Shown here piece by piece: positions 543 to 32,589 of a stretch of 38,009 bases of DNA; position 1 is the first letter of the stretch; each line of letters opens with the position of its first letter. The DNA comes from Prevotella sp. (lineage in GTDB: Bacteria > Bacteroidota > Bacteroidia > Bacteroidales > Bacteroidaceae), in NCBI GenBank assembly GCA_017615355.1, contig JAGAAJ010000011.1, forward strand, positions 1-38,009, read 5' to 3'. A model generated the notes under the pieces. The model saw nothing but the letters and a program-made list of their open reading frames with translations, was not told where the DNA came from and made no database searches. A program made the translations under genes and the position numbers.

Positions 543-3299
543 TCAGCTGCGGCTTACCTGCAGACCTGTGGTGGAGAGGGACATATCGACGAAACGGGCA
601 TTGGTGAGCGATGAGTGATGTGACGAGAGAATCTGCTTGATACGGGCTGCTGCCTCAGGGTCTTTGGCCACCATGTAGAGGTAGCCGCCACCACCAGCGC
701 CAGGCAACTTATATCCCAGGCAGAGATCGTCGACAAGCTCGGTGAGCCGTCTGACGGCCTCGGGGTTGGTGCCGCTGTCGATGAGCTGGTTCTGCTGCCA
801 CGTGCGTCGCACAAGGAGGCCCATCTGTCGGAAGTCCTGCCGCTGGATAGCGTCGAACATCTCTGCGGCCTGTTCCTTCATCTGGCGGAGGATGTCAAGC
901 TGTCGGCCGTTGTTGAGGAACATACGGCGCACGATCTCGGCCAATATCTGCTTGGCAGTACGCGTGATGCCCGTGTAATAGAGCAGATGGCACTGGCGAT
1001 ACTCGGGCTGCGTGTAGACATCGGTGGGCAGCCATCGTGCCAAAGGCTGCTGCGTAAAGCCACCATCGGTCTGCAACAGCTTGACGCCAGGCAGGATGCC
1101 TCCAAACTGGTCTTGCCATCCGCCGCCTGTGGTGAGCAGCTGCTCCAAAGCCAGCGTGCGACGGCCTATCTCGTTCTTGTCCCACGCCAACTGGCAGAAA
1201 TCGCTGACGGCGGCGAGGACGGTAGCAGCGAGGATGGAGCTGGTGCCCAATCCACTACCTGCGGGAATGGCGGAGAGCAAGGTCAGCTCGATGCCGCTGC
1301 CGAAGTCCCTCAGCTGTTCCTCAAGGGTGGAGAAGCTTCGCGCAGCAAATTGCGGTGCAAAGCCGGCCAGCGCCAGCGCAGCCTTCGGAATGGAGAAGGG
1401 TGAGCCTACGCGGTTATACTGCAGCAGCTCGTCGTAGGTGGTCACGGTCTCTGTGGCGCCAAGATCGATGCTTCTTAGAATAATCTGTGGCTTTGAAGAC
1501 GGTTTGATGTATGCCTGCAAGGGCTGCTGCCCGTTGAGCTCGATGGCCAGGTTCACCACGCTGCCACCTTCGAGGAGGCAATAGGGCGGCGTGTCGGTCC
1601 ATCCGCCGGCGATGTCGATGCGCACCGGACTGCGCGCCCACACGATTTGGTCGGTCTGCACGGCCAGCTGCGGCATCTGTTTCCGCGATACGATGTCGTC
1701 GATAATGCCTTGTCGCAGCAGCTCGAAAGCATGCTGGCTGTCGCCACGAAACATCGCGTCGTGGATGCGGGTCATCAGCGGGGCATCGTCGTTCAGCGGC
1801 GGAGGCAAGGGGATGTTGTTCTTGTGGAAGTCATGTGCGGCATCGTCGAGGTCGAGCTGATAGAAGACGCTGTGCTGCCAGTTGCGAGCCAGAGCAGGCC
1901 AATTCTCGCAACGGAAATGGCGCCGCTGGTCGAAAAGGCGGGCCAGGTTGGCCTGAGCAGAGATTTGCTCAGCACTCAAGAGGAGCGCATGGGGCTCATT
2001 GGCCTCATGGGGCTTATGGGGCTCATGGGCCTTATGGGTGAGCCAAGGCTCTATCTCATCCAACTTGAGCACGGGGAACTGCGGACGCTGCTGCTCTGCA
2101 CCGTCGAAGCGGTCGTCAATACGGTAGGGGCGTACTGCATAGTCGTCATTGCCGATGGGCACGATGTCGAGACATTGTCCTGGCTCAAGCGTCAGCTGCC
2201 AGTCGTTCTCAGGCACACCCGTCACGATATTGTCGTGGGTGAGTCGCCAACGTGGACCTATCCAGCTGTTCTCCACCCAGATGTTCGTATTCTGCTCTGT
2301 GAAATGAAAATGGTTGACGGTGTTCTGCACGAAGATGGAGGGATGGGGCTTACGGTCGTGGTGCATGATGCGTCGCTGGTCAGAGACGACATTCTGCAGG
2401 CGCACCGTCGAGGAAATCATCTCCGTCGAGGTGCCGAAATGGTAGAATTCGCCACCCGTCAGCGGCACGATGGCCACCGACAGCTCCTTCAACCCAGGGT
2501 CGTCAATCTCAGGGTCGGTGCCAAGGGCACGGCCGAAGTCGGAATAGAGATCGTAGAGGAGGGGTGAGTGTTGAGAGGTGAGAGGTGAGAGATTACAACG
2601 CTCCATCAACAGGCTGACGGCACGGTCGCTGAGCAGCCAGATGCCGATGTCGGTGAGGTAGAAATGCTCGCGCTGCATCTCGGACAGGCGTTCCACAGAG
2701 GGTTTCTGCAACATCTGCTTCAGCACCTGCGGCGTGTGACGATCGGCAATGAACACACCATGATGCTGTGCCACGCTGGCGTCAAGCCAAAGGCCATAGC
2801 ACACCACATCGGCCTTGGGGACTGGCGGCAGCGACGGCCTTTCGCCACCTACGCGGATGAGCACATCGCCGCTCACCACCATCGTGTTCAGTCCTATTGG
2901 CGCCATTTGCATGATGCGTTCGTAGAGTGGCAGCTGCAACGACAGGAGATCCTGGCTGAGCCGCTGTCCCCTTTCCCATCGGAACACAGGCACAGGCGTG
3001 AGGATTTTTCCTGACGGCGCATAGGCAGGCAGGCGCCGGCTCTGTCCTCCGGCATGGAGCAGGATGCGTTTCTCGCTCGCAAGCCAGTCAAAGAAAGTGG
3101 AGTGTGGAGTGTGGAGTGTGGAGTGGTAAGCCTGCCACAAAAGCCAAGCCGTGCCTCCGCCACTACCCACGCGATGGCCATCAGGATCGCAGGTACAGAA
3201 AAACTCGTCGGCACTAAGGCCGGTGATATCATGAAACACAGTATCGCCCTTGATGCCTTTCTGCACAAGGTTGGGCGGCAGGGAAAGTAACTTTTTCAT
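543..3299 (-). CDS. fkp: Bifunctional L-fucokinase / GDP-L-fucose pyrophosphorylase
   Basis: This 918-residue protein would phosphorylate L-fucose and then transfer GMP to give GDP-L-fucose for surface glycans. The N-terminal nucleotidyltransferase half carries GSGGGTAWLL near residue 46 and LLHAGGQSRRLPAYAPSGK near 80. The C-terminal GHMP-kinase half carries RSPVRIDIAGGWTDTPPY, the ATP loop PAGSGLGTSS (about 679-688) and PGAGGGG (about 866-872). Length and domain order match the Bacteroides Fkp family, which is near 950 residues. The ATG at 3299 starts MKKLLSLPPNL. The gene diverges from fucP, the matching transporter. Three short-period repeat arrays lie in frame at residues about 58-67, 236-247 and 422-437, all in poorly conserved segments away from the active sites. 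Confidence 0.96.
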   Translation of the reverse strand: MKKLLSLPPNLVQKGIKGDTVFHDITGLSADEFFCTCDPDGHRVGSGGGTAWLLWQAYHSTLHTPHSTFFDWLASEKRILLHAGGQSRRLPAYAPSGKILTPVPVFRWERGQRLSQDLLSLQLPLYERIMQMAPIGLNTMVVSGDVLIRVGGERPSLPPVPKADVVCYGLWLDASVAQHHGVFIADRHTPQVLKQMLQKPSVERLSEMQREHFYLTDIGIWLLSDRAVSLLMERCNLSPLTSQHSPLLYDLYSDFGRALGTDPEIDDPGLKELSVAIVPLTGGEFYHFGTSTEMISSTVRLQNVVSDQRRIMHHDRKPHPSIFVQNTVNHFHFTEQNTNIWVENSWIGPRWRLTHDNIVTGVPENDWQLTLEPGQCLDIVPIGNDDYAVRPYRIDDRFDGAEQQRPQFPVLKLDEIEPWLTHKAHEPHKPHEANEPHALLLSAEQISAQANLARLFDQRRHFRCENWPALARNWQHSVFYQLDLDDAAHDFHKNNIPLPPPLNDDAPLMTRIHDAMFRGDSQHAFELLRQGIIDDIVSRKQMPQLAVQTDQIVWARSPVRIDIAGGWTDTPPYCLLEGGSVVNLAIELNGQQPLQAYIKPSSKPQIILRSIDLGATETVTTYDELLQYNRVGSPFSIPKAALALAGFAPQFAARSFSTLEEQLRDFGSGIELTLLSAIPAGSGLGTSSILAATVLAAVSDFCQLAWDKNEIGRRTLALEQLLTTGGGWQDQFGGILPGVKLLQTDGGFTQQPLARWLPTDVYTQPEYRQCHLLYYTGITRTAKQILAEIVRRMFLNNGRQLDILRQMKEQAAEMFDAIQRQDFRQMGLLVRRTWQQNQLIDSGTNPEAVRRLTELVDDLCLGYKLPGAGGGGYLYMVAKDPEAAARIKQILSSHHSSLTNARFVDMSLSTTGLQVSRS
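1991..2035. repeat. 9-bp array x5 inside fkp
   Basis: Five 9-mers run head to tail: GGGGCTCAT, TGGCCTCAT, GGGGCTTAT, GGGGCTCAT, GGGCCTTAT. Because 9 is divisible by 3, the coding strand encodes a three-residue periodic His/Pro/Glu/Ala segment (HKAHEPHKPHEANEPHA) in the linker between the two enzyme halves. Confidence 0.9.
2559..2593. repeat. Heptamer array x5 inside fkp
   Basis: Units are GAGGGGT, GAGTGTT, GAGAGGT, GAGAGGT, GAGAGAT. The coding strand is the pyrimidine-rich one and encodes LSPLTSQHSPLL. Confidence 0.88.
3097..3124. repeat. Perfect heptamer array x4 inside fkp
   Basis: GTGGAGT is repeated four times without mismatch, for 28 nt. The coding strand gives HSTLHTPHSTF between the nucleotide-binding loop and the conserved WLASEKR segment. 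Confidence 0.92.
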
Positions 3300-3321
3300 G
3301 CTCAGTTTGTTTTTTGCCCTG

Positions 3322-3329
3322 CAAAAATA
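3322..3329 (-). promoter_or_regulatory. Putative -7 box of fkp
   Basis: On the minus strand the sequence is TATTTTTG, matching the Bacteroidetes TAnnTTTG element. It predicts a leader of roughly 15-20 nt before the fkp ATG at 3299. I see no clear -33 TTTG at 19-21 nt. Confidence 0.55.
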
Positions 3330-3372
3330 AGAAAAAGTTGGCGAAAAAGCATCGTTTCTAAAGAAAATATTG

Positions 3373-3380
3373 TAATTTTG
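3373..3380 (+). promoter_or_regulatory. Putative -7 box of fucP
   Basis: TAATTTTG lies 31 nt before the fucP start. The -33 element is not evident. Together with the minus-strand box at 3322 it makes 3300-3411 a divergent promoter region for the fucose genes. Confidence 0.55.
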
Positions 3381-3411
3381 CCCCGATAACCAGAAAGAAA
3401 CTGTTCAAACT

Positions 3412-11784: not shown

Positions 11785-13260
11785 TCAGAATACGATTGCT
11801 TCGTAGACATACAGCTCGGCATCGCGCCATCCATTCCATCCAAGGCCGGCTTTGTCCTGCGAACAGTGACCAAGAAATTCCTCCTTCGTCCAGTTCACCT
11901 GGTCGGCCACTTGCGGCAGGAAGGTGCCGCTACGACGTCCTTTGCGGATGTAGATGCCATGTTTGTGCAACTGGAACTCCTCAATACTCTGGATGCGGCG
12001 CATGGGCGTGAGGACAGAAATCTCGATGTCGACATCAGCCAGCTCTTCACGACGCAGCGGCATGAAACGTGGATCTTCGAAGGCAGCAGCACGGGCCATC
12101 TCTGCCACGATTTCATGCAGGGGTGTGTCTTCGCCGAAGTGCCCGATGCATCCACGCAGCTGTCCGTGTTTGTGAAGCGACACGAAAGCACCGCATTTGG
12201 CCGAGAGGTGCGAGGTGAGAGATGAGAAGCGAGAGATGGGCTTCCCGTCAAGACTGTCCTTGATACTCTGGAGGGCGATGTCTTTCAGGATTTGTTTCTC
12301 CTCATCTGATAATGCAAATCCCCTTTCTTCTCCTCGCAGGATTGCGAAGGAGTGATAGCCCACCACACGGCTGTGGTCGTGGTCGTCGATGTCTCCGGAG
12401 TTCTGGTATAGCAGGTGCTTCACTTCGTAGCGGCTGTCGAGCATCATCAGGAGCGTGGCAATGGCATACTCTCCGCAGGCACTCGTGGCGAGGTTGCGCT
12501 TGCCGCTCTTGGCGTTGACATGCAACGCCTCGATAAACTGCGTAATATCGCCGCTCTCCACAGCCTTTCCCGTCCTGGCATCCACCTCGCAGGCGTCTTC
12601 GTATGACGGATAATGAGAGAAGTCGCTGCTGATAACAAAGAGATTGTCGTCGTTGAAGAAAGGCTTCAGCACCTCAGCCATCCGTTTCAGTTGCCTGAAG
12701 TCGTTGGTGGAGATGATGATGGGCACGATAGGCGGCACCTCTTTAGGGGATTGCGAAGAGTGAAGGGCGAAGAGCCGCTGCAGGAACGGCAGCTGCACCT
12801 CCAGGCAATGCTCGCTGTCGTGTGCTTCCTTGCGGTAGGAAAACACGCTGTCAGCATTGATGAGCTGCTGTGCCGTCTCCACGTCTACCCTCACCTGTCC
12901 TAACGGTGTAGCATAAAAGTCGGCTTCGCTGTTTACGGAGGCGCCGTCGAGCCACACATGGTGGCTGGGACCTATCAGGAAGATGCGCTTATAGGTCTTC
13001 TCAGGGCTTAGCGTCATATAGGCCGAAGCCGCCACATTGCCTGAGAAATAATAGCCTGCGTGAGGCACGATGAGTGCCGCCACATTCCCATACTCCTCAC
13101 TCCCGCTGTGAAGTGCCAGCAGGCTGTCCACCTCCTGGCTGAGCAGCTGAGGGTTCTTCTCATAGAATCTTCCGGCCTGCGTAGCCGGTCTCACTACTGG
13201 TATCTGTCTGTCGCTCATACTCATTATTGCAAATAATGCCAAAAATACTATACTCTTCAT
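11785..13260 (-). CDS. AmmeMemoRadiSam system fusion: Memo (B) plus AMMECR1 (A)
   Basis: A 491-residue fusion. Residues about 18-310 form a Memo domain with putative metal ligands His67 (VPHAGY), His100/101 (GPSHHV) and Cys262 (TSACGEY), plus SSDFSHYPSYEDA. Residues about 320-491 form an AMMECR1 domain with its signature LRGCIG (368-373). I start at ATG 13260 because the longer frame upstream runs antisense to the helicase gene and two -7 boxes lie just above 13260. The N-terminus MKSIVFLALFAIMSMS is hydrophobic and could be a signal peptide, which would be odd for a partner of a cytosolic radical SAM enzyme; ATGs at codons 13 and 15 are alternatives. Two heptamer arrays fall in loops (near residues 163-170 and 342-353). 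Confidence 0.9.
   Translation of the reverse strand: MKSIVFLALFAIMSMSDRQIPVVRPATQAGRFYEKNPQLLSQEVDSLLALHSGSEEYGNVAALIVPHAGYYFSGNVAASAYMTLSPEKTYKRIFLIGPSHHVWLDGASVNSEADFYATPLGQVRVDVETAQQLINADSVFSYRKEAHDSEHCLEVQLPFLQRLFALHSSQSPKEVPPIVPIIISTNDFRQLKRMAEVLKPFFNDDNLFVISSDFSHYPSYEDACEVDARTGKAVESGDITQFIEALHVNAKSGKRNLATSACGEYAIATLLMMLDSRYEVKHLLYQNSGDIDDHDHSRVVGYHSFAILRGEERGFALSDEEKQILKDIALQSIKDSLDGKPISRFSSLTSHLSAKCGAFVSLHKHGQLRGCIGHFGEDTPLHEIVAEMARAAAFEDPRFMPLRREELADVDIEISVLTPMRRIQSIEEFQLHKHGIYIRKGRRSGTFLPQVADQVNWTKEEFLGHCSQDKAGLGWNGWRDAELYVYEAIVF
12203..12237. repeat. Heptamer array x5 inside the Memo/AMMECR1 gene
   Basis: Units are GAGAGGT, GCGAGGT, GAGAGAT, GAGAAGC, GAGAGAT. The pyrimidine-rich coding strand gives SRFSSLTSHLSA, in the linker between the Memo and AMMECR1 domains. 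Confidence 0.85.
12753..12773. repeat. Heptamer array x3 inside the Memo domain
   Basis: GCGAAGA, GTGAAGG, GCGAAGA run in tandem. The coding strand gives LFALHSSQS, in a loop after the conserved HCLEVQLPFLQ helix. With three units this is the weakest of the clear examples. Confidence 0.65.
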
Positions 13261-13269
13261 ATCCGTTTG

Positions 13270-13285
13270 CAAAATTACAAAATTA
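13270..13285 (-). promoter_or_regulatory. Duplicated -7 box upstream of Memo/AMMECR1 operon
   Basis: On the minus strand TAATTTTG occurs twice head to tail (13278-13285 then 13270-13277), 10-18 nt above the ATG at 13260. Either could serve the operon Memo/AMMECR1, radical SAM, LOG. A -33 TTTG is not obvious. Confidence 0.55.
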
Positions 13286-13320
13286 AATGAATAATGTGTG
13301 TTAAATTCTGAAATATTTCG

Positions 13321-13328
13321 TACTTTTG
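13321..13328 (+). promoter_or_regulatory. -7 box abutting the helicase start codon
   Basis: TACTTTTG ends only five bases before ATG 13334. If used, the transcript would begin at or within a few bases of the start codon. The -33 position has TGTG rather than TTTG, so the match is partial. Confidence 0.5.
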
Positions 13329-13333
13329 CAGCC

Positions 13334-15151
13334 ATGATGAAGACATTTGAAGAATTGGGCGTTAGCGCCGCCATCCGCCGCGCTATTGAGGAACTGGGAT
13401 TTGTACAGCCCATGCCTGTACAGGAGGAGGTCATTCCCTTCTTGATAGAGGGGCAGCGCGACGTCATCGCTCTAGCGCAGACGGGCACAGGCAAGACGGC
13501 AGCCTTCGGCATCCCATTGCTGCAACGCATCGACACCAGCAGCCGCGACACACAGGCTCTGGTGCTCTCGCCCACCCGCGAGCTGTGCCTGCAGATTACT
13601 GACGACCTGCGTGACTTTGCCAAATATATGGAAGGCGTTCACGTGGAAGCCGTCTACGGCGGCGCAGCCATAGAGCCGCAGATGCGAGCGCTGAAAAAGG
13701 GCGTCAATATCATCGTGGCCACGCCAGGACGTCTGATCGACCTGAAGAATCGCGGCTTCGTTCACCTCGAGAATGTGAGCACCATCGTGCTCGATGAAGC
13801 CGACGAGATGCTGAACATGGGTTTCTCCGACAGCATCAACGAGATATTCGAGTCTTTGCCTGAAGAGCACTGCACGCTGATGTTCTCAGCCACGATGAGC
13901 CGTGAGGTGGAGCGTGTGGCCAAGCAGTACCTCAAGGACTACGAGACCATCGTCGTGGGTTCTCGCAACGAGGGGGCTGAAAACGTCAACCACATCTATT
14001 ACATGGTGCAGGCCAAGGACAAGTACCTGGCCCTGAAGCGTATCGTGGACTTCTATCCCAAAATCTTCGCCATCATCTTCTGTCGCACGAAGATAGAGAC
14101 GCAGGAGATTGCCGACAAGCTCATCCGCGACGGCTACAATGCCGAGTCGCTGCACGGCGACCTCTCGCAGCAGCAGCGCGACCTCACCATGCAGAAGTTC
14201 CGCCAGCACCTCACGCAGCTTCTCGTAGCCACCGACGTGGCAGCACGAGGACTGGATGTCGACGATCTCACACATGTCATCAACTTCGGCCTGCCCGACG
14301 ACATCGAGAACTATACCCATCGCTCAGGCCGCACGGGCCGTGCAGGCAAGAAAGGCACTAGTATCAGCATCGTACACTCGAAGGAGAAGCACAAGATTCG
14401 CAACATCGAGAAAGAGATTGGCAAGAAGTTCGTTGAGGCGCCCATTCCTTCTGCAGAGGAAATCTGCAAGAAACAGCTCTACAAGGTGATGGACCAAATC
14501 GTGAAAACCGACGTAGATGACGATGAAATCGCGCCTTTTATGCAGGACATCAGCCGTTACTTCGAGTATATCGACAAGGAAGAGATCATCAAGAAGATTG
14601 TCTCGCTGGAGTTCGGCAAGTTCCTTGCCTACTATGCTGACGCACCGGAGATAGAGATAGTGAAAGAGGAAAGAGGAAAGAGGAAGGAGGAAAGAGAACA
14701 GAGCGACAAGCAGAAGCGCATGAACAAGGCGCAGCCGGGCTATCACCGTCTGTTCATCAATCTAGGCAAGCGCGACGGTTTCTATCCAGGTGTGCTCATG
14801 CAGACGCTCAACCGCTATGTGGGCGGCAGGCAGGAGGTAGGCCATATCGACCTGCTCGACACCATCTCATATTTCGAGGTGCCTGAGAAAGATGCCAAGA
14901 AAGTGATGACGCAGCTCACAGGCATCCGCTATCACGGGCGTGTGGTGCGCTGCAACTCTGAAGATGAGAAAAAGACCGATTTCATCGGTAAATCCGAAAC
15001 GAAAAACCCCTCCCGCAAGGACAAGTCAAAGCGTCCTAAGCGCGACGACTGGAGAGCACTGATGAACGACAGTCAGAAATTCTTCAAAGGCGAAGAGCCC
15101 GACTTTTCCGAAGAGGGTTGGGCACGCCGCAAGCCAAGAAAGAAGTCGTGA
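13334..15151 (+). CDS. DEAD-box RNA helicase with DbpA-like RNA-binding domain
   Basis: A 605-residue ATP-dependent RNA helicase, probably for ribosome assembly or mRNA remodelling. Q-motif region and Walker A AQTGTGKT (49-56), PTREL near 81, DEAD (154-157), SAT (185-187) and HRSGRTGRAG near 330 are all present. From about residue 470 the segment YHRLFINLGKRDGFYPGVL...RYHGRVVRC resembles the DbpA C-terminal RNA-binding fold, followed by a basic tail. I prefer ATG 13334 (or 13337) to the in-frame GTG at 13298, since the -7 box at 13321 would lie inside the longer frame. A heptamer array encodes KEERGKRKEER at about residues 445-454, just before the RNA-binding domain. The family is commonly named DeaD/CsdA-like. 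Confidence 0.93.
   Translation: MMKTFEELGVSAAIRRAIEELGFVQPMPVQEEVIPFLIEGQRDVIALAQTGTGKTAAFGIPLLQRIDTSSRDTQALVLSPTRELCLQITDDLRDFAKYMEGVHVEAVYGGAAIEPQMRALKKGVNIIVATPGRLIDLKNRGFVHLENVSTIVLDEADEMLNMGFSDSINEIFESLPEEHCTLMFSATMSREVERVAKQYLKDYETIVVGSRNEGAENVNHIYYMVQAKDKYLALKRIVDFYPKIFAIIFCRTKIETQEIADKLIRDGYNAESLHGDLSQQQRDLTMQKFRQHLTQLLVATDVAARGLDVDDLTHVINFGLPDDIENYTHRSGRTGRAGKKGTSISIVHSKEKHKIRNIEKEIGKKFVEAPIPSAEEICKKQLYKVMDQIVKTDVDDDEIAPFMQDISRYFEYIDKEEIIKKIVSLEFGKFLAYYADAPEIEIVKEERGKRKEEREQSDKQKRMNKAQPGYHRLFINLGKRDGFYPGVLMQTLNRYVGGRQEVGHIDLLDTISYFEVPEKDAKKVMTQLTGIRYHGRVVRCNSEDEKKTDFIGKSETKNPSRKDKSKRPKRDDWRALMNDSQKFFKGEEPDFSEEGWARRKPRKKS
14666..14693. repeat. Heptamer array x4 inside the helicase gene
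   Basis: GAGGAAA, GAGGAAA, GAGGAAG, GAGGAAA, 28 nt, then a looser fifth unit GAGAACA. Here the purine-rich strand is coding; this particular heptamer has no stop in any frame. It encodes a charged linker. Confidence 0.88.
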
Positions 15152-15245: not shown

Positions 15246-15302
15246 TTAGCTTGCCAAAAGGCCCATAATGACGAACTTCAAGCGGCTGCTAATAGTCATT
15301 AG

Positions 15303-15330
15303 GAGCCTCTTGAGCAAATTTAAGAGGCTC
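15303..15330 (+). terminator. Hairpin after the helicase gene, possible terminator
   Basis: GAGCCTCTT (15303-15311) pairs exactly with AAGAGGCTC (15322-15330). The following run TTCAGCAATTTTT is only moderately T-rich, so termination is plausible but weak. Confidence 0.4.
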
Positions 15331-15373
15331 TTCAGCAATTTTTGGAGGCTTCGGTGACTTTTCCTGATTTTAC

Positions 15374-16571: not shown

Positions 16572-19016
16572 CTATGGCATTTCCAACGCTTTCTGCATTC
16601 TTTCGGCCTCCGGCATACAAAAACTGAAGTCACCTGACTGTACGCGCTTGACGGTGCCGTCGGGCAGGTGTATCTCGGCGTCGGAGCCTTGTGGAATGGT
16701 GACGTCCATAGTCCATTGACTGCGGTCGGGCGAGGCTGTCCAATGGCAGACGATGTAGCCCTTCGGCGACTTGAAGCTGGTGTTGGCCCATGTGAGGTTG
16801 CCCACCATCTGCGGTGCGATGACGATGTGACGCCAGCCTACGCTGCCCTCTTTCTGACGGATTCCGCCAGGTGCCTGGAATATCCACTCCATCAAGTGGC
16901 CCAGCATCATGTGATTGTTTGATGCGTTGTCGTATGCCTGCCAGCTCTCGGTCAGCGCTGTGGCACCCTGACGGATCTGCCAGGCATAGCCGGGAATGTC
17001 GTTGCGCTGGATGATCTGCCAGATGAGATCTGAGTAGCCGCCCTGCTCAAGTGCCTGCAGGACGTAGCGGAAACCTACATCGCCGGAAGTGATGAGAGGT
17101 GTGAGGTGAGAGGTGTGAGGTGAGATGGTTTCCATGCGGTTAGTGAGGTCGTCCGCCAGCGACTGCAGGACGTCGTTGCGGTTGTCATCGGTCACTAAAT
17201 CCATGTAGAGGGCCATTGCCGAGGCCGTCTGGCTGCCGTTCTCATACTGTCGTTTCTCAGCATCCCAGAAACGCTGGTTGAAGGCGTGTTTCACATCGGC
17301 AGCCATCGTGGTGAAACGGCGTGCGTCGTTGACCCTGCCCAACAGCTGCGCGATGCGGCTCATGGTGCACAGCTCGTAGTGATACATCGCCGTAGCCGAG
17401 AGGGCGACGGAGGTGAGCTGTGCCTTGCCCGGCCGATCAGGGCCGATGTCGAACCAGTCGCCCAGGCCGTAGTCGAGGATGCCGTCATTGGTGCGACTCT
17501 GCAGGTAGTCGATGTAGCGCTTCATCGCATTGTAATGTTTGCGAAGGGCGCTGGCGTCGCCATACCATTGATAGGTGTACCAGGGACAGAGGATGAACGA
17601 GGCACCCCACTCGGGTGTATCCTCGAAGCCGCTGCCCTTGTCGAAGACGGTATACTCAGGCGCGATGGTGGGGATGGCGCCGTCGGCATGCTGCGAGGCG
17701 GCCAGGTCGTCGGCAATCTTGTTCATCAGCGCCTGCATGTCGTAGCGGTACATCATCGAGGCGGCCATCAGATGGTTCTGCTCCTGCCAACCCAGCTTTT
17801 CACGGGTGGGGCAGTCGGTGGTGATGCTGGTCAGATTGCTGCTGATGGCCCAGTCGATGAGCTTGAAGATGCGGTTGAGCTGCTCGTCGGAGCAGTCGAA
17901 GGTGCCCGTATAATCAACATCGGCAGAGGTATGGATGGCTGTGAGCTTGAGAATATCCACATCGTCGTCGGCCTCCACCTCCACGTAGCGGAAGCCCGTG
18001 TAGGTGAACTGCGGCTGCCAAGTCTCGCCCTCGGCATCACCACGCAGGGTATAGGTCCATGCATAGTTCGGAGCACAATGCTGATAGACGTGGCCATCCT
18101 TCATGAGCTCGGCCGGTCGCAGGGTGATGGTGCTGCCCCGCTTGCCGCAAACCGTCAGGCGAACAATGCCGGAGAAGTTCTGCCCCGAATCGAAGATGAA
18201 GGGGACGGGGATGCTTTTCTCCTCCTTCACTCTCTTATTCATCATCGATATGTGAGGAGAGATTTGCTGCATGAACTGCTCTTGTTTGATGCGAAGGCGG
18301 GTGCGGTCGTCCTGTTTCTTCAGCGGTACGTCCCAATGCGGACGGGTGATGACGACGGGCCTCTGCTCGCTGCTGAAGGTGGCGTCGTAGGTCTCGCCGC
18401 CGAAGATGCTGCTATAGCGGATGGGGCTCTCGCTCACCTTCCACGAGCCGTCGCTGACGATGGTCTGCCGCTGGCCGTTGGTGTACTCGATATGCAGGGC
18501 GAAGAGCAGCTTCGGCGCTCCACAAGAGCCCGCAAACTTATGGTAGCCCTGCAGGGGCACGTCATACATGCCGCTGCCCAGCATTATTTTGAGGTGAGAG
18601 GTGGGAGGATTCCCGCTGACGCGCCTACCCGTAGCCTTTGAGAGGTGAGAGGTTACGTCGAAAGTGTTGTAGAGCAGCTCCTTGTCGTACATCGTCCAAC
18701 CTGGGTCGAGGAAATGCTCGCCTATGCGCTGGCCATCAATAAAGAGCTCGTATTGCCCCAGTCCGCAGACGCTGGCCCATGCCTTTTTTATCGTGCCTTG
18801 CTTCAGTTGTACCTGCTTTTCAAACACAGGCAGGGCATACTGCTTGAGCGACTGCCCCTCGGCTGACGACTTCTTCAACAGGTGTATGTGTGGGAAGAGG
18901 ATGGTGGAGTCAGCCTCCATCGCAATCCATTGTGCGCCCCTGAACTCGTTGTCCTGGGCAAACAGCGACGATGCCGATAGCAGCATCGCTACCAATGATA
19001 TGAGCAGCTTTTTCAA
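16572..19016 (-). CDS. Alpha-L-rhamnosidase, GH78
   Basis: An 814-residue secreted glycoside hydrolase that removes terminal alpha-L-rhamnose from plant or microbial glycans. A Sec signal (MKKLLISLVAMLLSASSLFAQ) is encoded from TTG 19016; no ATG gives this signal, and the TTG overlaps the capA stop as TTGA, suggesting coupled translation. GH78 hallmarks include WASVCGLGQYELFIDG, DPGWTMYDK, TDCPTREKLGWQEQNHL (Asp401, Glu406) and GLGDWFDIGP. Heptamer arrays encode THLSxx-type loops at two places (17094-17128 and 18591-18653). The ending FSFCMPEAERMQKALEMP lies next to the IS3 orfB in the same frame; its last dozen residues look coiled-coil-like and may be IS-derived. Confidence 0.93.
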   Translation of the reverse strand: MKKLLISLVAMLLSASSLFAQDNEFRGAQWIAMEADSTILFPHIHLLKKSSAEGQSLKQYALPVFEKQVQLKQGTIKKAWASVCGLGQYELFIDGQRIGEHFLDPGWTMYDKELLYNTFDVTSHLSKATGRRVSGNPPTSHLKIMLGSGMYDVPLQGYHKFAGSCGAPKLLFALHIEYTNGQRQTIVSDGSWKVSESPIRYSSIFGGETYDATFSSEQRPVVITRPHWDVPLKKQDDRTRLRIKQEQFMQQISPHISMMNKRVKEEKSIPVPFIFDSGQNFSGIVRLTVCGKRGSTITLRPAELMKDGHVYQHCAPNYAWTYTLRGDAEGETWQPQFTYTGFRYVEVEADDDVDILKLTAIHTSADVDYTGTFDCSDEQLNRIFKLIDWAISSNLTSITTDCPTREKLGWQEQNHLMAASMMYRYDMQALMNKIADDLAASQHADGAIPTIAPEYTVFDKGSGFEDTPEWGASFILCPWYTYQWYGDASALRKHYNAMKRYIDYLQSRTNDGILDYGLGDWFDIGPDRPGKAQLTSVALSATAMYHYELCTMSRIAQLLGRVNDARRFTTMAADVKHAFNQRFWDAEKRQYENGSQTASAMALYMDLVTDDNRNDVLQSLADDLTNRMETISPHTSHLTPLITSGDVGFRYVLQALEQGGYSDLIWQIIQRNDIPGYAWQIRQGATALTESWQAYDNASNNHMMLGHLMEWIFQAPGGIRQKEGSVGWRHIVIAPQMVGNLTWANTSFKSPKGYIVCHWTASPDRSQWTMDVTIPQGSDAEIHLPDGTVKRVQSGDFSFCMPEAERMQKALEMP
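17094..17128. repeat. Heptamer array x5 inside the GH78 gene
   Basis: GAGAGGT, GTGAGGT, GAGAGGT, GTGAGGT, GAGATGG alternate. The coding strand gives ISPHTSHLTPLI, in a loop of the helical barrel domain. Confidence 0.88.
18591..18653. repeat. Two heptamer blocks around a 30-nt insert in the GH78 gene
   Basis: GAGGT, GAGAGGT and GGGAGGA (18591-18609), then about 30 nt, then GAGAGGT twice (18640-18653). The coding strand gives SHLS, ATGRRVSGNPP, TSHL. The two blocks are in the same orientation, unlike the inverted pairs elsewhere. Confidence 0.82.
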
Positions 19017-25405: not shown

Positions 25406-27099
25406 ACCGTTTCAACCTTCAGCAACAGACGGACCAGTGCTACGACGGTTTCCCTGCCGACGAGCGGCCCGTCATAGGCATCACGGCGAACTATGGTGAA
25501 CAGACAGCCAAGCTTGCCGAGGGCTACTACAAACAGGTGTTGGCGGCTGGCGGCATACCCCTCATTATCCCTCCCTTTACCGATTGCCCCTCATTACTCA
25601 CCACTCTCAATCGCATCGATGCCCTACTGCTAACTGGTGGCGCCGATATCAATCCGCTCTATCAGGGCGAGCAGCCGCAGCCGCAGCTTGGCGGCATCAA
25701 CGACGAGCGCGACCTGCCCGAGCTGCTCATTACCCGTCTGGCCTTCAACCGCCAGCTGCCCATCCTCGGCATCTGTCGTGGCATCCAGACGATGGCGATG
25801 GCCTTAGGCGGCAAGGTGGCGCAGCACATCAGCACCGATATCAAGCACTCGCAGGATGCCGACCGCCATGTGCCCACCCACAGCATCAGCATTGAGCCTG
25901 ATACATTATTATATAAGTTGACAGGAAACGCTGTCAACTCTTTCCATCATCAGGCAGTATTGGAGCCTGGCCCGCATTTCCGTGTCAGCGCCACAGCCCC
26001 CGACGGCATCATTGAGGCCATCGAAAGTACCGAGAGCAAGCCGATGCTGGGTGTGCAATGGCATCCTGAGTGTATGGGCGAAGACGGGCTGCCGCTCTTC
26101 CGCTGGCTTGTGGATGAGGCCTGCACCTACCGAAAGACACAGCGCCTGCACGACCGCATCCTCACCCTCGACACCCATTGCGACACGCCGATGTTCTTTC
26201 CGCAGGGCATTAACTTCGCCACTCGCGACAGTCGCATCCTCGTTGACCTGCCAAAGATGACCGAAGGGCGCCTCGATGCTACCATCATGGTGGCCTACAT
26301 CCCGCAGAAGATGGAGGAGTCCGCCTATGCCTATGCTAACAGCATCTTCGACAAGATAGAGACCATCGTCGGCGACAACGCCGCACATCTGGCCCTTGCC
26401 CGTACGCCCGACGAGCTATGGCAGAACAAGCAGGCAGGCAAGAAAAGCATCATGCTGGGCATCGAGAACGGCAAGGCCCTTGAGGGCAAGCTCGCCAACG
26501 TGCAGCACTTCGCCAATCGCGGCATCGTCTATATCACTCTATGCCACAATGGCGACAACGACCTTTGCGACTCGGCCAAGGGCGAGCAAACCTATGGCGG
26601 CGTGAGTCCCTTCGGCAGAGAAGTCATTGCAGAGATGAACCGGCTCGGCCTGATGGTCGACCTGAGCCATGCCCACGAGAAGAGTTTCTATGATGCCCTC
26701 GACATCTCGAAGACGCCCATCGTGTGCAGCCACTCGTCGTGTCGCGCCCTCTGCGACCATCCGCGCAATCTTACCGACGACCAGATGCGTGCCTTGGCGA
26801 AGAAAGGCGGCGTCTGCCAAATCACGGTCTACCCAGGATTTCTCAACGCTAACGGGAACGCTAACATTAACGACGTGATGGCTCACCTCGACCACGCCAT
26901 CCAGGTGATGGGCATCGACCACGTGGGACTTGGCACCGACTTCGACGGCGACGGCGGCGTGCCGGGCCTGGCCAATGCCAGCGAGCTCTCGCTCTTCACC
27001 CGCCAACTGCTTAAGCGCCGCTACAATGACGACGATATCCAGAAGATTTGGGGAGGCAATTTCCTCAGAGTTATGAAACAAGTTCAAGAACACAGATGA
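25402..27099 (+). CDS. Fusion of C26 gamma-glutamyl hydrolase and M19 dipeptidase
   Basis: A 565-residue two-domain enzyme. Residues about 20-240 form a class I glutamine-amidotransferase-like/C26 domain (PuuD type, gamma-glutamyl cleavage) with nucleophile Cys125 (GICRG), His221 and Glu223 (QWHPE). Residues about 245-565 form an M19 (renal dipeptidase) domain with zinc ligands His259 and Asp261 (DTHCD), the bridging Glu in GIENGKA, the His residues around SHSSCRALCDHPRN and GTDFDGDGG. Both active sites look complete. No signal peptide is seen. The design suggests two-step breakdown of gamma-glutamyl peptides. Degenerate arrays occur at 25590-25610 and 26845-26874. It overlaps both neighbours by ATGA. 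Confidence 0.92.
   Translation: MNRFNLQQQTDQCYDGFPADERPVIGITANYGEQTAKLAEGYYKQVLAAGGIPLIIPPFTDCPSLLTTLNRIDALLLTGGADINPLYQGEQPQPQLGGINDERDLPELLITRLAFNRQLPILGICRGIQTMAMALGGKVAQHISTDIKHSQDADRHVPTHSISIEPDTLLYKLTGNAVNSFHHQAVLEPGPHFRVSATAPDGIIEAIESTESKPMLGVQWHPECMGEDGLPLFRWLVDEACTYRKTQRLHDRILTLDTHCDTPMFFPQGINFATRDSRILVDLPKMTEGRLDATIMVAYIPQKMEESAYAYANSIFDKIETIVGDNAAHLALARTPDELWQNKQAGKKSIMLGIENGKALEGKLANVQHFANRGIVYITLCHNGDNDLCDSAKGEQTYGGVSPFGREVIAEMNRLGLMVDLSHAHEKSFYDALDISKTPIVCSHSSCRALCDHPRNLTDDQMRALAKKGGVCQITVYPGFLNANGNANINDVMAHLDHAIQVMGIDHVGLGTDFDGDGGVPGLANASELSLFTRQLLKRRYNDDDIQKIWGGNFLRVMKQVQEHR
25590..25610. repeat. Degenerate heptamer array x3 in the C26 domain
   Basis: CTCATTA, CTCACCA, CTCTCAA in tandem, encoding SLLTTLN just before the conserved RIDALLLTGGADI strand. 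It resembles the other arrays but is degraded. Confidence 0.5.
26845..26874. repeat. Hexamer array x5 in the M19 domain
   Basis: AACGCT, AACGGG, AACGCT, AACATT, AACGAC encode NANGNANIND. The 11-mer TCAACGCTAAC at 26843-26853 recurs at 27111-27121 in the signal-peptide codons of the next gene, where a similar run AACGCT, AACTTT, AACCTT encodes TLTLTL. Confidence 0.75.
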
Positions 27100-28127
27100 A
27101 CAAACTATTTTCAACGCTAACTTTAACCTTGACGATACTATCCTGCGGAGGTTCGAAGGTAAACAACACCCAATTTGCAACATCTGACATACATGTTTCT
27201 GTACCTGTCGATGTCAGCTTCGATTCTGATTCTGCCTACGCCTTCTGCCAAAAGCAGTGCGACTTCGGTCCGCGCACGATGAACAGCGATGCCCATGAGC
27301 AATGCGGACAATGGATAGCCAGTAAGTTTCAGGACTACGGCCTGCAGGTAACGGAGCAGCGCACCACCGTACACGGTTTCAATGGCACCCCGCTATTGGC
27401 CAATAACATCATCGCCAGCTACAAACCCGAGCTCTCTGACCGCATCCTCATCTGCGCCCATTGGGACAGCCGTCCCTGGGCCGACAACGACCCCGACGAA
27501 TCTAAGCACCATGAGCCCGTAATGGCTGCCAACGATGGTGCCAGTGGTGTGGCCGTCATGCTCGAACTAGCCCGTTTGTTAAGAGTTAAGAGTTTAGAGT
27601 TGAGTGACTCTTCTAACGCCGATGAAACGTCTCTCAACTCTCAACTCTCAACTCTCAACATCGGCATCGATTTCATTTGCTTCGATGCCGAAGACTGGGG
27701 TTCCCACAATGACAGCGAATCATGGTGTCTGGGCTCGCAGTATTGGGCTCGCAATCCGCACAAGCCTGGCTACAAGGCCCGTTTCGGCATCCTGCTCGAC
27801 ATGGTGGGTGGCCAGCAGGCTCGCTTCTATCGCGAATATTATTCTACAAAGTATGCGAATTCTGTGGTAGACCGCGTGTGGAGCGCAGCATTCACGGCAG
27901 GTTACAGCGGCTACTTCCTGCATGAGGAGTCAGGCGCCATTACCGACGACCACCTGCCTGTCAACGAGATTGCCCATATTCCCTGCATCGACATCATCCC
28001 CTATTATCCCAACAGCGAAAGCTCCTTTGGTCCCACTTGGCACACCGTCAGCGACGACATGCAGCACATCGACAAAAACACGCTGAAGGCCGTTGGACAG
28101 ACCCTCGTGCAGGTCATCTGGGAATGA
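27096..28127 (+). CDS. M28-family glutaminyl-cyclase-like lipoprotein
   Basis: A 343-residue zinc-peptidase-fold protein of the M28 family, closest in appearance to glutaminyl-peptide cyclotransferase-like members. ATG 27096 overlaps the preceding stop as ATGA and gives a short signal with lipobox Cys17 (TLTILSC). The putative metal site includes His122 and Asp124 (HWDSRP), Asp147 (ANDGASG), Glu199/Asp200 (DAEDWG), TDDHLPVN and a late His in GPTWHTVSDD. An inverted pair of heptamer arrays encodes residues about 162-188, between two core elements. It is the last gene of the Lrp operon; whether it cyclises glutamine or cleaves peptides cannot be told from sequence. Confidence 0.9.
   Translation: MNKLFSTLTLTLTILSCGGSKVNNTQFATSDIHVSVPVDVSFDSDSAYAFCQKQCDFGPRTMNSDAHEQCGQWIASKFQDYGLQVTEQRTTVHGFNGTPLLANNIIASYKPELSDRILICAHWDSRPWADNDPDESKHHEPVMAANDGASGVAVMLELARLLRVKSLELSDSSNADETSLNSQLSTLNIGIDFICFDAEDWGSHNDSESWCLGSQYWARNPHKPGYKARFGILLDMVGGQQARFYREYYSTKYANSVVDRVWSAAFTAGYSGYFLHEESGAITDDHLPVNEIAHIPCIDIIPYYPNSESSFGPTWHTVSDDMQHIDKNTLKAVGQTLVQVIWE
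27578..27658. repeat. Inverted pair of 28-nt heptamer arrays in the M28 gene
   Basis: Left array 27578-27605: GTTAAGA, GTTAAGA, GTTTAGA, GTTGAGT. Right array 27631-27658: CTCTCAA four times without mismatch. The arms are reverse-complementary in register apart from a few substitutions and are separated by 25 nt. Total length is 81 nt, so the insert keeps frame although each 28-nt arm alone would not. Confidence 0.93.
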
Positions 28128-29564: not shown

Positions 29565-30809
29565 ATGACGGATATTCCAATGAAGATGTCGTCCAGAATC
29601 ATTGAACATCCTGACATGCGGGTGCTTCACCTGCCCAGCACGTCGCAGGTGGCTTACTGCGGCATCGCCGTACATGCCGGCTCCCGTCATGAGACGCCGC
29701 AGCAACAAGGACTGGCTCATTTCTGCGAGCATCTGGCCTTCAAGGGCACAGAACGGCGTACTGCTACGCAGATCATCAACGCCATCGAAGGACTGGGCGG
29801 CGAGCTCAATGCCTTCACGAACAAGGAGGACACCGTATATTATTGTGCCATCGAACAGCGCCACCTTCGCCGTGCACTCGACGTGTTGCAGGACATCGTG
29901 TTCCACAGCCAGTATCCTGAGAATGAGGTGGAGAAAGAACGCGAGGTAGTGTGCGACGAGATAGAGAGCTACGAGGACACGCCCGCCGAGCTTATCTACG
30001 ACGATTTCGAGAACATCCTCTTCGAGGGCCATCCCCTTGGCCACAACATCCTTGGCACCAGCGAACAGGTGCGTTCTTACACATCGGCCGATGCGCTCCG
30101 CTTTAGACAGAAATGGTATCAGCCAGAGAACTGCGTGCTGTTTGTTTCCTGTGGAAGGTGGAATGTTGATGGTGGAAGGTGGAAGGAGAATACTCCCGCC
30201 TCAGACAAATCTCCCTCCATCCTCCACCATCAACCCTCCACCATCAACCATCACCATCTACCTTCCACCATTACAAGGGATCGCGGCACCCACCAGGCCC
30301 ATGTGATGGTGGGCACCCGTGCCTACGCCGCTGGCGACGAACGCCGCTGGGCACTCTATCTGCTGAACAATATCCTTGGCGGCCCGGCGTTGAACTCGCG
30401 GCTGAGCATGGCGCTGCGCGAACGCAACGCCCTCGTCTACACCGTCGACAGCTCGATGGTGAGCTACAGCGACACGGGCATGTGGAGCATCTACTTCGGC
30501 TGTGATCCTGACGACACGAAGCGCTGCCTTCGACTGGTGCGACAACAGCTCGACCGTCTGATAGACAAGCCGTTGAGCGAGAGTCAGCTGCGTGCCGCCA
30601 AGCGACAGCTACAGGGCCAGCTGGCCATTGCCGCTGAAAACCGCGAGCAGACCGTCCTTGACTGTGCCCGTACCTTCCTGCATACGGGTAAAGTAAGGAC
30701 TGTCAACGACGTGATGGCGCATATCGCCACGCTCTCAGCCGCCGACCTACAGCAAAGCGCCCAGGAACTGTTTGCCCCTGAGCGCCTTACCACACTTATC
30801 TATCAGTAA
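29565..30809 (+). CDS. M16-family (pitrilysin-like) zinc protease
   Basis: A 414-residue M16 peptidase. The inverted zinc motif is His52-Phe-Cys-Glu55-His56, and the third ligand lies in EKEREVVCDEIESYED near residue 130. The second half contains GTHQAHVMVGTRAY and LLNNILGGPALNSRLSMALRERNALVY, conserved in processing-peptidase-like members. The linker between the two halves (about residues 197-236) is encoded almost entirely by heptamer repeats and is rich in Ser, His and Pro. ATG 29565 follows AGGAA; ATG 29580 is an alternative. There is no signal peptide. The stop directly abuts the stop of convergent manC. Confidence 0.92.
   Translation: MTDIPMKMSSRIIEHPDMRVLHLPSTSQVAYCGIAVHAGSRHETPQQQGLAHFCEHLAFKGTERRTATQIINAIEGLGGELNAFTNKEDTVYYCAIEQRHLRRALDVLQDIVFHSQYPENEVEKEREVVCDEIESYEDTPAELIYDDFENILFEGHPLGHNILGTSEQVRSYTSADALRFRQKWYQPENCVLFVSCGRWNVDGGRWKENTPASDKSPSILHHQPSTINHHHLPSTITRDRGTHQAHVMVGTRAYAAGDERRWALYLLNNILGGPALNSRLSMALRERNALVYTVDSSMVSYSDTGMWSIYFGCDPDDTKRCLRLVRQQLDRLIDKPLSESQLRAAKRQLQGQLAIAAENREQTVLDCARTFLHTGKVRTVNDVMAHIATLSAADLQQSAQELFAPERLTTLIYQ
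30153..30271. repeat. Inverted heptamer arrays filling the M16 linker
   Basis: Left block 30153-30187: GGAAGGT, GGAATGT, TGATGGT, GGAAGGT, GGAAGGA. Right block 30216-30271: eight units beginning TCCATCC, TCCACCA, TCAACCC, TCCACCA. The blocks are reverse-complementary in composition and register (ACCTTCC and ACCATCA types) and separated by 28 nt. They encode RWNVDGGRWKE and HHQPSTINHHHLPST. Confidence 0.92.
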
Positions 30810-31969: not shown

Positions 31970-31991
31970 TTAAACTTTTTTGTGAAAAAAG

Positions 31992-32028
31992 AAGAACGTT
32001 AGACGGAATCCATCTAACGTTCTTTTTT
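31992..32028 (-). terminator. Terminator between rplS and manC
   Basis: AAGAACGTTAGA (31992-32003) pairs with TCTAACGTTCTT (32013-32024) over a nine-base loop. T runs flank both sides, so it can serve rplS on the minus strand and also stop plus-strand transcription. Confidence 0.9.
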
Positions 32029-32053
32029 CGTGGGGTACTTCTACATAAAGAAT

Positions 32054-32446
32054 TTATGCTTCCTTCTTCACAGCAACGCGCTTCTCCTTGATGCGGGCAG
32101 CCTTACCCGTGAGCTTGCGCAGGTAGTACAGCTTGGCGCGACGCACCTTACCGTGCTTGTTCACCTCGATGCTGTCGATATTGGGCGACTCAAGGGGGAA
32201 GATACGCTCCACACCCACGGTGCCAGACATCTTACGGACAGTGAAGCGCTTCTTGTCGCCATGGCCGCAGATCTTGATGACTACGCCGCGATAGAGCTGG
32301 ATGCGCTCCTTGGAACCCTCGATAATTTTGTAACCAACGGTGATGGTGTCACCAGGAGCGAACTCCTCAAACTTCTTGCCGCCTTCAGCAGCCTTGGCCT
32401 GATTGCTGGTTGCAAATGCTTCTTCAGCAACTTTAATTAAATCCAT
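32054..32446 (-). CDS. rplS: 50S ribosomal protein L19
   Basis: A 130-residue L19 with the signature region [54 protein letters not shown] and [23 protein letters not shown], each recognisable in shorter blocks. It is somewhat longer than the roughly 115-residue E. coli form owing to a basic C-terminal tail. It is transcribed alone, with a leader of about 100 nt (32447-32546) and its own terminator. The leader contains a small GC hairpin (GCCG/CGGC at about 32532-32545). Confidence 0.97.
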
Positions 32447-32546
32447 TGTATTAAACTACTAATAATTAAATTGTTGTATCGTTCCAACGCAACATAACGG
32501 GCAACTCTCCTATCTTCCCGCCATCGGTTACGCCGAAAAGCGGCTG

Positions 32547-32554
32547 CAAAGGTA
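32547..32554 (-). promoter_or_regulatory. Putative -7 box of rplS
   Basis: The minus strand reads TACCTTTG. The positions where a -33 TTTG should lie (about 32574-32579) are inside the heptamer array at 32562-32589. Confidence 0.65.
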
Positions 32555-32561
32555 CGAAAAA

Positions 32562-32589
32562 GTTGAGAGTTGAGAGCTGAGTGTTGAGC
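32562..32589. repeat. Heptamer array x4 in the rplS promoter
   Basis: GTTGAGA, GTTGAGA, GCTGAGT, GTTGAGC, 28 nt. It begins seven bases beyond the -7 box and covers the expected spacer and -33 region. It is the only clear heptamer array here that is not inside a gene. Confidence 0.9.

What the first reader, a model, noticed from the sequence alone, without database searches (positions are those of the whole stretch)
1991..32589. A dispersed family of 7-bp (and 9-bp) tandem arrays lodged inside conserved genes
I count at least ten arrays with a 7-bp unit: 2559, 3097, 12203, 12753, 14666, 17094, 18591/18640, 27578/27631, 30153/30216 and 32562. A 9-bp array lies at 1991. They fall in Fkp, Memo/AMMECR1, a helicase, GH78, M28 and M16 genes and one promoter, always outside recognisable active-site motifs. 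Unit sequences differ (GTGGAGT, GAGAGGT, GAGGAAA, GTTGAGA, GGAAGGT) but are all purine-rich on one strand. Several arrays are exactly four units (28 nt). A shared period with different sequences suggests a mechanism that makes short periodic DNA, not copies of one element. Most coding arrays use the pyrimidine strand; because 7 is not a multiple of 3, the purine strand would often present stops. I know of no described mechanism for this.
Basis: partly seen in the sequence, partly recalled or inferred. Interest (0 to 1): 0.85.

Follow-up and report, generated by a model that had tools for sequence, protein, structure and literature searches.

The report
Hairpin elements armed with 7-base repeats
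Many of the scattered 7-base repeats are arms of small hairpin-shaped DNA elements that sit in frame inside working genes of Prevotella; longer copies carry a little-understood protein gene known from insertions in ribosomal RNA, which hints at a wide, largely unnoticed family of such elements.

Summary
Confirmed: period-7 arrays are far above chance (95 in 682 host gene models against a mean of 1.2 after codon-preserving shuffles; window 7 against 0). Many are not free-standing satellites but the arms of discrete palindromic elements: about four tandem heptamers, a conserved core, then the heptamers inverted. The window holds two whole ones (27577-27660 in an M28 gene, 30151-30271 in an M16 gene), both in frame; its other arrays are solo or half arms. 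In relatives, elements picked by core alone have heptad arms that end about 30 nt from the core. Two long copies with the same ends, and one in the host genome, carry a 23S-rRNA-IVP (S23, four-helix-bundle) gene. IVP genes are bracketed by inverted arms in 35 of 45 usable loci (tandem 7/8-mers in 31 of those 35) against 0 of 400 random spans and 3 of 146 small genes; phylum-wide 12 of 26 against 5 of 287. Best reading: IVS/IVP-type mobile hairpin elements outside rRNA, with short in-frame derivatives resembling Rickettsia palindromic elements. Movement was not observed and the reason for 7/8-nt units is not shown. 71 of 105 host arrays have no recognised core half; their descent from such elements is inferred.

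The parts
27577..27660 (+). Whole type-A palindromic element, in frame in an M28 peptidase gene (27048-28127 +): purine arm GTTAAGA GTTAAGA GTTTAGA GTTGAGT, core GAC..GTC, inverted arm TCTCAAC x4; reads LLRVKSLELSDSSNADETSLNSQLSTLN
   Evidence: M28 by Pfam; aligned with 12 other host copies; model R1, which was built with it, scores it 1e-18; most of 29 orthologues lack it
30151..30271 (+). Whole type-C palindromic element, in frame in an M16 peptidase gene (29565-30809 +): GTGGAAG/GTTGATG arm, core GGAGAATACTCCCGCCTCAGACAAATCTCC, inverted arm; reads GRWNVDGGRWKENTPASDKSPSILHHQPSTINHHHLPSTI
   Evidence: M16 by Pfam; partly similar cores at L024:3254 and L009:13646; orthologues have unrelated loop sequence of similar length, so it stands in place of loop residues
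3097..3125 (-). Solo arm, (GTGGAGT)x4, in Fkp variable loop 1 (gene 543-3299 -)
   Evidence: same unit in both arms of a palindrome with 35-nt arms and no mismatch in locus L196; other inserts at this loop in relatives, incl. a whole type-B element in L031
2559..2591 (-). Solo arm (GGTGAGA family) ending in a core half GAGATTAC, in Fkp variable loop 2
   Evidence: GAGATTA endings on 4 of 105 host arrays, this one included
12202..12238 (-). Degenerate GAGAGGT-type array in the AmmeMemoRadiSam B/A gene (11785-13623 -)
12753..12775 (-). Weak GCGAAGA array in the same gene
   Evidence: score 32; below the stricter cut-off
14662..14703 (+). GAAAGAG array in the C-terminal part of a DEAD-box RNA helicase gene (13298-15151 +), purine strand coding
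17093..17125 (-). GAGGTGT/GAGGTGA array in an alpha-L-rhamnosidase-like gene (16572-19016 -)
18591..18653 (-). Two short GAGAGGT-type stretches in the same orientation, same gene
32561..32592 (+). Solo GTTGAGA-type arm in an intergenic stretch beside a TAnnTTTG promoter-like box on the minus strand
   Evidence: nearness to such boxes is not above chance (5 of 46 arrays not inside genes against 422 of 3092 random such places)
1988..2038 (-). 9-bp array in Fkp variable loop 3; a separate array family

Best explanation
Many of the arrays are arms, whole or in part, of small mobile palindromic elements of the intervening-sequence (IVS/IVP) type. SHOWN: a short element is about 80-120 bp: an arm of about four tandem heptamers, a conserved core, and the arm inverted; elements with unrelated cores share this build; the same core and loop recur at unlinked sites within a genome; arm length is fixed at about 30 nt; elements occur between genes and, in one constant reading frame per type, inside conserved genes at loops where relatives have a plain loop or another insert. 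Some long copies with the same ends carry an IVP (PF05635, four-helix bundle) gene, and IVP genes in Bacteroidota are often bracketed by inverted arms, mostly of tandem 7- or 8-mers, and lie in sense with their neighbours. INFERRED: the short copies are non-autonomous derivatives mobilised, or once mobilised, by IVP-bearing copies; solo arrays are decayed halves, some lengthened by slippage; the arms copy each other through the hairpin, which keeps them matched while unit sequences drift; the IVP ring binds the tandem units. In-frame, stop-free copies survive because they are translated as harmless loops.
For: Palindromic pairs: 37 of 40 nearby opposite-oriented array pairs (34 host, 6 G010; some nested) point purine arm-core-pyrimidine arm. 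22 of the 34 host pairs lie inside one ORF model. Constant frames: type A LRVESLELxD..SLNSQLSTLN, B EELRVKSEEFATA..VANSSLFTLHSS, D EELRTKSYDYS..SNHNSSLFTLNS. Core-only searches: B 33 places in 6 of 119 genomes, 0 control hits; D 37 places in 13 of 119 genomes, control hits in 4 of 119. Flanks of such cores have period-7 autocorrelation 0.74 (B, n=32) and 0.63 (D, n=36) against 0.20-0.41 at periods 4-6 and 8-12. Left-right identity drops past 30 nt: B 0.84 to 0.35, D 0.77 to 0.61 to 0.45; with no row dropped the fall is 0.84 to 0.40 (25 coding) and 0.74 to 0.51 to 0.42 (43 non-coding). Arms match within an element beyond same-genome chance in non-coding copies (n=33; 23.4 against 22.1 of 28; 5 of 10,000 permutations). 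Long copies: L324 and L326 carry type-B ends around PF05635 hits; host contig C59 has an IVP gene inside GTTNAGA arms and type-A core halves. IVP arms score 14 or more in 18 of 26 and 17 of 19 usable loci, against 0 of 400 random spans and 3 of 146 host small genes; the best period is 7 or 8 on both sides in 14 of 18 and 17 of 17. Phylum-wide 12 of 26 against 5 of 287. Neighbours in sense 73 of 82 against 66% of adjacent pairs in the host.
Against: 71 of 105 host arrays have no core half that I recognise, so their origin from elements is not shown. Of three places where opposite type-B ends lie 400-500 bp apart, the third (L325) has no IVP gene, only other repeats. Coding copies show no arm matching beyond chance (n=21; 6741 of 10,000 permutations). 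13 aligned type-A copies show 0 compensatory pairs among 13, though these pairs hardly vary. No target-site duplication was seen, and no excision or new insertion was observed. In M16 the element stands in place of loop residues of about equal length, so a clean insertion is not seen there. Type-C arms are tied to IVP by unit family only; the core of L376 differs. 10 of 45 IVP loci lack clear arms; phylum-wide 14 of 26. Genomes with type-A hits but no IVP hit exist (G010, G018), and the reverse (G026, G029, G046). Two nuclease-like families (PDDEXK_3, DUF559) also sit inside inverted repeats, so inverted flanks are not unique to IVP.
Confidence: 0.7

Rival explanations
1. Ordinary microsatellites: polymerase slippage favours a 7-nt step, arrays arise anywhere and survive where the loop tolerates them.
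For: Solo arrays are common (71 of 105 without a known core half); periods 6, 8 and 9 are also raised; heptamers are over-represented in many bacteria and slippage was proposed (PMC4692102, passages). Loops in Fkp and threonine synthase have different units in different species.
Against: Fixed 30-nt arms, conserved cores, inverted pairing, recurrence of one core and loop at many sites and the IVP link are not products of slippage. Variation in 70 GTTGAGA-family arrays is position-specific: A5 differs in 0 of 355, position 4 in 17.5%, position 7 in 15%, though stop avoidance in genes may add to position 4.
Confidence: 0.17
2. Non-autonomous DNA transposons (MITE) or REP elements moved by an unrelated transposase such as the Y1/RAYT type; the IVP gene is a passenger.
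For: Terminal inverted repeats, many copies, patchy presence; the IVP-bearing form could be cargo, and other small genes sit in inverted repeats too.
Against: No target-site duplication; the host genome (89.7% complete) and G008, G023 and G027 carry elements but gave no Y1_Tnp hit. No formal correlation was made and other transposases were not tested.
Confidence: 0.15
3. Functional RNA hairpins or terminators kept for gene regulation, which need inverted arms and drift into genes by chance.
For: Many copies lie outside long ORFs, some with perfect arms; IVP copies lie in sense with neighbours.
Against: 25 of 68 core-selected copies lie in long open frames, nearly always in the type's own frame; no compensatory changes among 13 aligned type-A copies (weak because pairs hardly vary); loops differ between most genomes.
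Confidence: 0.08
4. The repeat peptides themselves are selected as flexible linkers.
For: Inserts fall in inter-helix loops of Fkp (low-confidence model, mean pLDDT 62.9).
Against: Different peptides, same DNA build; non-coding copies keep the build; many orthologues lack the insert.
Confidence: 0.03

Closest known systems
23S rRNA intervening sequences (IVS) with S23/IVP gene, e.g. Coxiella (PMC4990558, abstract and passages)
   Same: Stem of inverted ends (28 bp there; about 30 nt here), optional S23p/IVP gene, whole element of about 430-520 bp, called selfish, mobility unexplained
   Different: Here between and inside protein genes, no rRNA nearby in 39 IVP loci tested; arms are tandem 7/8-mers; many short copies without the gene; in-frame copies lie in open frames
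Rickettsia palindromic elements (RPE); Ogata et al. 2000/2002 recalled, summarised in PMC10969869 (passages)
   Same: Palindromes of about 150 bp in frame inside unrelated genes, coding a conserved peptide
   Different: Other phylum; tandem-repeat arms and IVP-bearing partners are not described for RPE in the passages I saw
Heptameric repeats: Calothrix heptanucleotides, GGGNATC in Xanthomonas/Nostoc (PMC4692102, passages), TAACTGA in Beggiatoaceae (PMC4679880, abstract and passages)
   Same: Dispersed tandem heptamers; inverted pairs noted in Xanthomonas
   Different: Described there as mostly intergenic and not as arms of an element; here 90 of 136 lie inside gene models. L419 IVP arms (TCAGTAA/TCAGTTG) resemble the complement of TAACTGA, a lead only
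PINSR of Prevotella intermedia (PMC4755523, passages)
   Same: Dispersed repeat in Prevotella
   Different: 188 bp, intergenic, no terminal inverted repeats
PARCELs (PMC2996958, passages) and coding palindromes of Nematomorpha mitochondria (PMC6649704, abstract)
   Same: Palindromic DNA that is translated
   Different: PARCELs are repeated amphipathic protein domains; no heptamer arms or IVP mentioned in what I saw
Foldback (FB) transposons of Drosophila (recalled)
   Same: Inverted ends built from short tandem repeats around a core
   Different: Eukaryotic, longer repeats, no IVP (recalled)

Membership tests
IVS/IVP elements | S23/IVP (PF05635) gene between the arms | tested here: met
   Met for long copies L324, L326, host C59 and C84; absent from the short copies, including both in the window, and from long copy L325
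IVS/IVP elements | Terminal inverted repeats forming a stem of roughly 30 bp | tested here: met
   arms of about 30 nt; 35 of 45 IVP loci
IVS/IVP elements | Insertion in helices of 23S rRNA | tested here: not met
   No rRNA match at Rfam's threshold in 39 IVP-bearing loci and the window (flanks 0.5-1.5 kb, longer for L084); so filed as a relative, not as an rRNA IVS
IVS/IVP elements | Excision from RNA by RNase III | not testable with these tools
   needs RNA work
Rickettsia palindromic elements | Palindrome of about 100-150 bp in frame in unrelated genes, one constant frame | tested here: met
   lengths here about 80-120 bp
Rickettsia palindromic elements | Sequence homology to RPE families | not tested
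   no RPE sequence was compared
MITE | Terminal inverted repeats with target-site duplication | tested here: not met
   inverted ends yes, but direct repeats of 3 or more at the 30-nt ends in 0 of 31 B and 0 of 30 D copies
REP/RAYT | Y1_Tnp (PF01797) in carriers | tested here: not met
   0 in the host genome, 89.7% complete
Microsatellite (heptamer SSR) | Tandem 7-mers above chance | tested here: met
Microsatellite (heptamer SSR) | No larger unit or fixed ends | tested here: not met
   for paired arrays; open for solo arrays

The most novel reading that the evidence does not exclude
IVP proteins are the recognition factor of a phylum-wide class of hairpin mobile elements: the toroidal pentamer reads one 7- or 8-nt unit per subunit along an arm (as TRAP reads its repeats, recalled), which is why arms are tandem repeats of that period whatever their sequence; the arms are remade from each other at each move, so units drift in concert. 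The rRNA IVS would be one specialised branch, and short in-frame copies a continuing source of new protein loops.
Probability: 0.2. Interest if true: 0.95.

Novelty: new variant of a known kind. Interest (0 to 1): 0.8.

Why it matters
S23/IVP proteins have no known function and the origin of IVS is called unclear more than 25 years after their discovery (PMC4990558, passages). Tying them to many short-tandem-armed hairpins gives a defined substrate to test. It also offers an explanation of heptamer abundance in this lineage by a mobile element rather than by slippage alone, and shows a recurrent supply of in-frame inserts into enzymes such as threonine synthase and Fkp. In the listings of the nine literature searches made (PMC open-licence papers only, top results only) I saw no report of this link; subscription papers were not searched.

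Tried and rejected
Rejected or not supported: Y1/RAYT mobilisation. Target-site duplications at offsets 24-36: no consistent signal; the raised D counts at offsets 26-27 I read as arm periodicity. RNA helix kept by compensatory change: 0 of 13 pairs, little power. Promoter preference of arrays outside genes: at chance. Arm matching in coding copies: none. PINSR: different. The backwards control of the first pattern searches is uninformative because GTTGAGA read backwards is a rotation of itself. First control of IVP flanks by swapping partners was contaminated by related loci (14 of 128 at score 15 or more, maximum 117, against 17 of 30) and was replaced by random spans and small genes; the small-gene control left out the host's own C59 IVP. 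The structure of Fkp gave only a low-confidence model; the three variable sites fall in its loops 61-68, 235-250 and 425-442. No fold search was made.

Names of par, radC, lpxH and threonine synthase genes are recognised from translations by memory. Rows dropped: L240, L242, L243, L248, L249, L269, judged by eye to be chance cores, (one search keeps them); 4 cut loci, 1, 3; 4 loci without an assigned strand. Core halves and the heptamers of L296, L298 were assigned by simple patterns or by eye.


Full report
THE OBSERVATION. The window comes from a Prevotella-like genome: 14 Fkp orthologues at 52-83% identity are in records named Prevotella or Prevotellaceae and one Alloprevotella. In 0.98 Mb of the host genome period 7 stands out (136 arrays at score 12 or more; 0-2 for periods 4, 5, 10, 11, 13; 26 for period 8), also in contigs not picked for hits (28 in 361 kb). 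In 682 gene models there are 95 arrays against a mean of 1.2 (maximum 4) in ten codon-preserving shuffles; in the window's genes 7 against 0. GTTGAGAGTTGAGAGTTGAGA with up to two mismatches matches 107 places, many overlapping, in the genome, and exactly in 10 of 30 genus genomes, the host included.

ARRAYS AS ARMS. Reading the flanks of arrays showed recurring sequence. Opposite-oriented arrays within 110 nt of each other are arranged purine arm, core, pyrimidine arm in 37 of 40 cases (34 host, 6 G010; a few rows are nested). In the host the cores fall into types. Type A: GTTnAGA units, then GACnTTTC...AAAnGTC (13 copies aligned). Type B: TTTGCTACCGC...GCGGTAGCAAA (imperfect in the host). Type C: GAGAATTGTC...GAGTATTCTC. 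The window has one whole type A (27577-27660) and one whole type C (30151-30271). 22 of 34 host pairs lie inside one ORF model, and in-gene copies of a type share one frame; the purine arm carries stops in other phases and the copies in genes avoid them.

TEST WITH THE ARMS LEFT OUT. To avoid circularity I searched 119 genomes with core patterns only. Type B occurs at 33 places in 6 genomes with no hit of the backwards control; a second core, type D (TTATGATTA...TAATCATAA), at 37 places in 13 genomes, with control hits in 4 of 119. The host itself has no exact match to either pattern. The 35 nt beside these cores have period-7 autocorrelation of 0.74 (B, 32 distinct copies) and 0.63 (D, 36), other periods 0.20-0.41. 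Left-right identity and periodicity both end near 30 nt from the core, abruptly in B, over two positions in D: the arm is A(RTKNAGA)x4R in both families although the cores are unrelated. Type A units (GTTNAGA) fit the same consensus; type C units do not. Arms of the two sides match beyond same-genome permutations in non-coding copies (n=33; 23.42 against 22.14 of 28; 5 of 10,000) but not in coding ones (n=21; 6741 of 10,000). In several loci unit variants are mirrored (L173, L175, L182, L191; L292, L293). 25 of the 68 core-selected copies lie in long open frames.

GAIN AND LOSS. In M28, most of 29 orthologues have the plain loop; L119 has another, type-D-like insert and a few have other extra residues. 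In M16 the element stands where orthologues have unrelated residues of similar length, so replacement rather than plain insertion is possible there. In Fkp the three variable loops carry, among 14 orthologues, a whole type-B element (L031), a half (L032), a GAGAAAT palindrome (L034), a GTTGAGA array (L029), 9-bp arrays (L029, L033), a CCCTCCCT...GGGAGGG palindrome (L037, L042) or no such insert (L035, L041). In threonine synthase 5 of 30 species have heptamer arrays at one and the same loop, with three unit families; most others have the plain loop, a few other extra residues. So presence differs between species and recurs at tolerant loops.

THE LONG COPIES. Looking for distant partners of type-B ends (list cut) gave three places with ends 400-500 bp apart. 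Two, L324 and L326, code for a PF05635 / TIGR02436 protein, the 23S rRNA intervening-sequence protein; the third, L325, has no IVP gene. The relative with a solved structure is 2rld, five chains, and the host's own IVP is weakly similar to the Avd protein of diversity-generating retroelements (E 2e-8, below cut-off). The host has two IVP genes. One (contig C59) lies between genes I recognise as parA and parB, inside GTTNAGA arms with type-A core halves; the other (C84) has ATAATGC arms. Across relatives the inverted arms around IVP genes score 14 or more in 18 of 26 and 17 of 19 usable loci, against 0 of 400 random spans and 3 of 146 host small genes; the best period is 7 or 8 on both sides in 31 of these 35. 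The second set was chosen from genomes of interest. In a phylum-wide draw 12 of 26 against 5 of 287. IVP genes run with their neighbours in 73 of 82 cases against 66% of adjacent pairs in the host. No rRNA is near 39 IVP loci.

HOW IT PROBABLY WORKS. Shown: discrete hairpin elements, short and long forms with common ends, recurrence at unlinked sites, in-frame residence. Inferred: IVP is the protein that serves these elements, acting on a hairpin of RNA or single-stranded DNA; no duplication of target and sense orientation fit such a route better than a cut-and-paste transposase. S23p of Xanthomonas is a toroidal homopentamer (PMC4990558, passage), so a repeat-by-repeat contact is a natural guess for the 7/8-nt units. 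Copying of one arm from the other while folded would keep arms matched and let units drift. Solo arrays are then leftovers; 34 of 105 host arrays still carry a known core half, 71 do not, and for those slippage alone remains possible.

WIDER PATTERN. The only three of 146 control small genes with strong inverted flanks code for PDDEXK_3 (two) and DUF559 (one) proteins; the DUF559 gene is flanked by a CCCTCCCT/GGGAGGGG palindrome like the one found, short and in frame, in Fkp loop 2 of two other species. So short in-frame palindromes with long, gene-bearing versions may be a general scheme.

COMPARISON. It works like the rRNA IVS (stem of inverted ends, optional S23p gene) and lives like Rickettsia palindromic elements (in frame in conserved genes). 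It is not filed as an rRNA IVS since the site feature is not met, nor as a MITE or REP. I call it a new variant of a known kind.

Noticed in passing
L061:13878-14250, L087:11571-12015, L057:6388-6775 (host genome): DUF559 and PDDEXK_3 genes sit inside strong inverted repeats; a palindrome like that of the DUF559 gene recurs, short and in frame, in Fkp of L037 and L042.
   Followed up: partly
window 15299-15350; L065:3911, L075:9751 and others: A 21-nt repeat family (GGAGGCTCCTCAGCAAAATAA) is dispersed in the host genome.
   Followed up: no
L061:3173, L083:16289, L028:1460: A dispersed family CCCAAGGCTTGGGACTTTT with its own palindromes.
   Followed up: no
L051:15498, L073:12536, L063:18090: A dispersed CGTTATTTCGTTATAACG-like family.
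   Followed up: no
window 1988-2038; L029 and L033 Fkp; G010 sample: 9-bp arrays of related kind lie at variable Fkp loops of three species; period 9 is raised in G010 (22 arrays in 0.4 Mb).
   Followed up: partly
L093, L098, L100, L101, L184 (genome G010): Here the core between GTTGAGA arms is itself a CCTAGTATTCCTAGTAATTCTAG-like repeat; this genome has no PF05635 hit.
   Followed up: no
L419 (genome G162): IVP arms of TCAGTAA/TCAGTTG units resemble the complement of the TAACTGA heptamer of Beggiatoaceae and cyanobacteria.
   Followed up: partly
window 18591-18653 and L325: A shared stretch CGCCTACCCGTAGCCTTT lies between the two arrays here and inside a long type-B copy of another species.
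   Followed up: no
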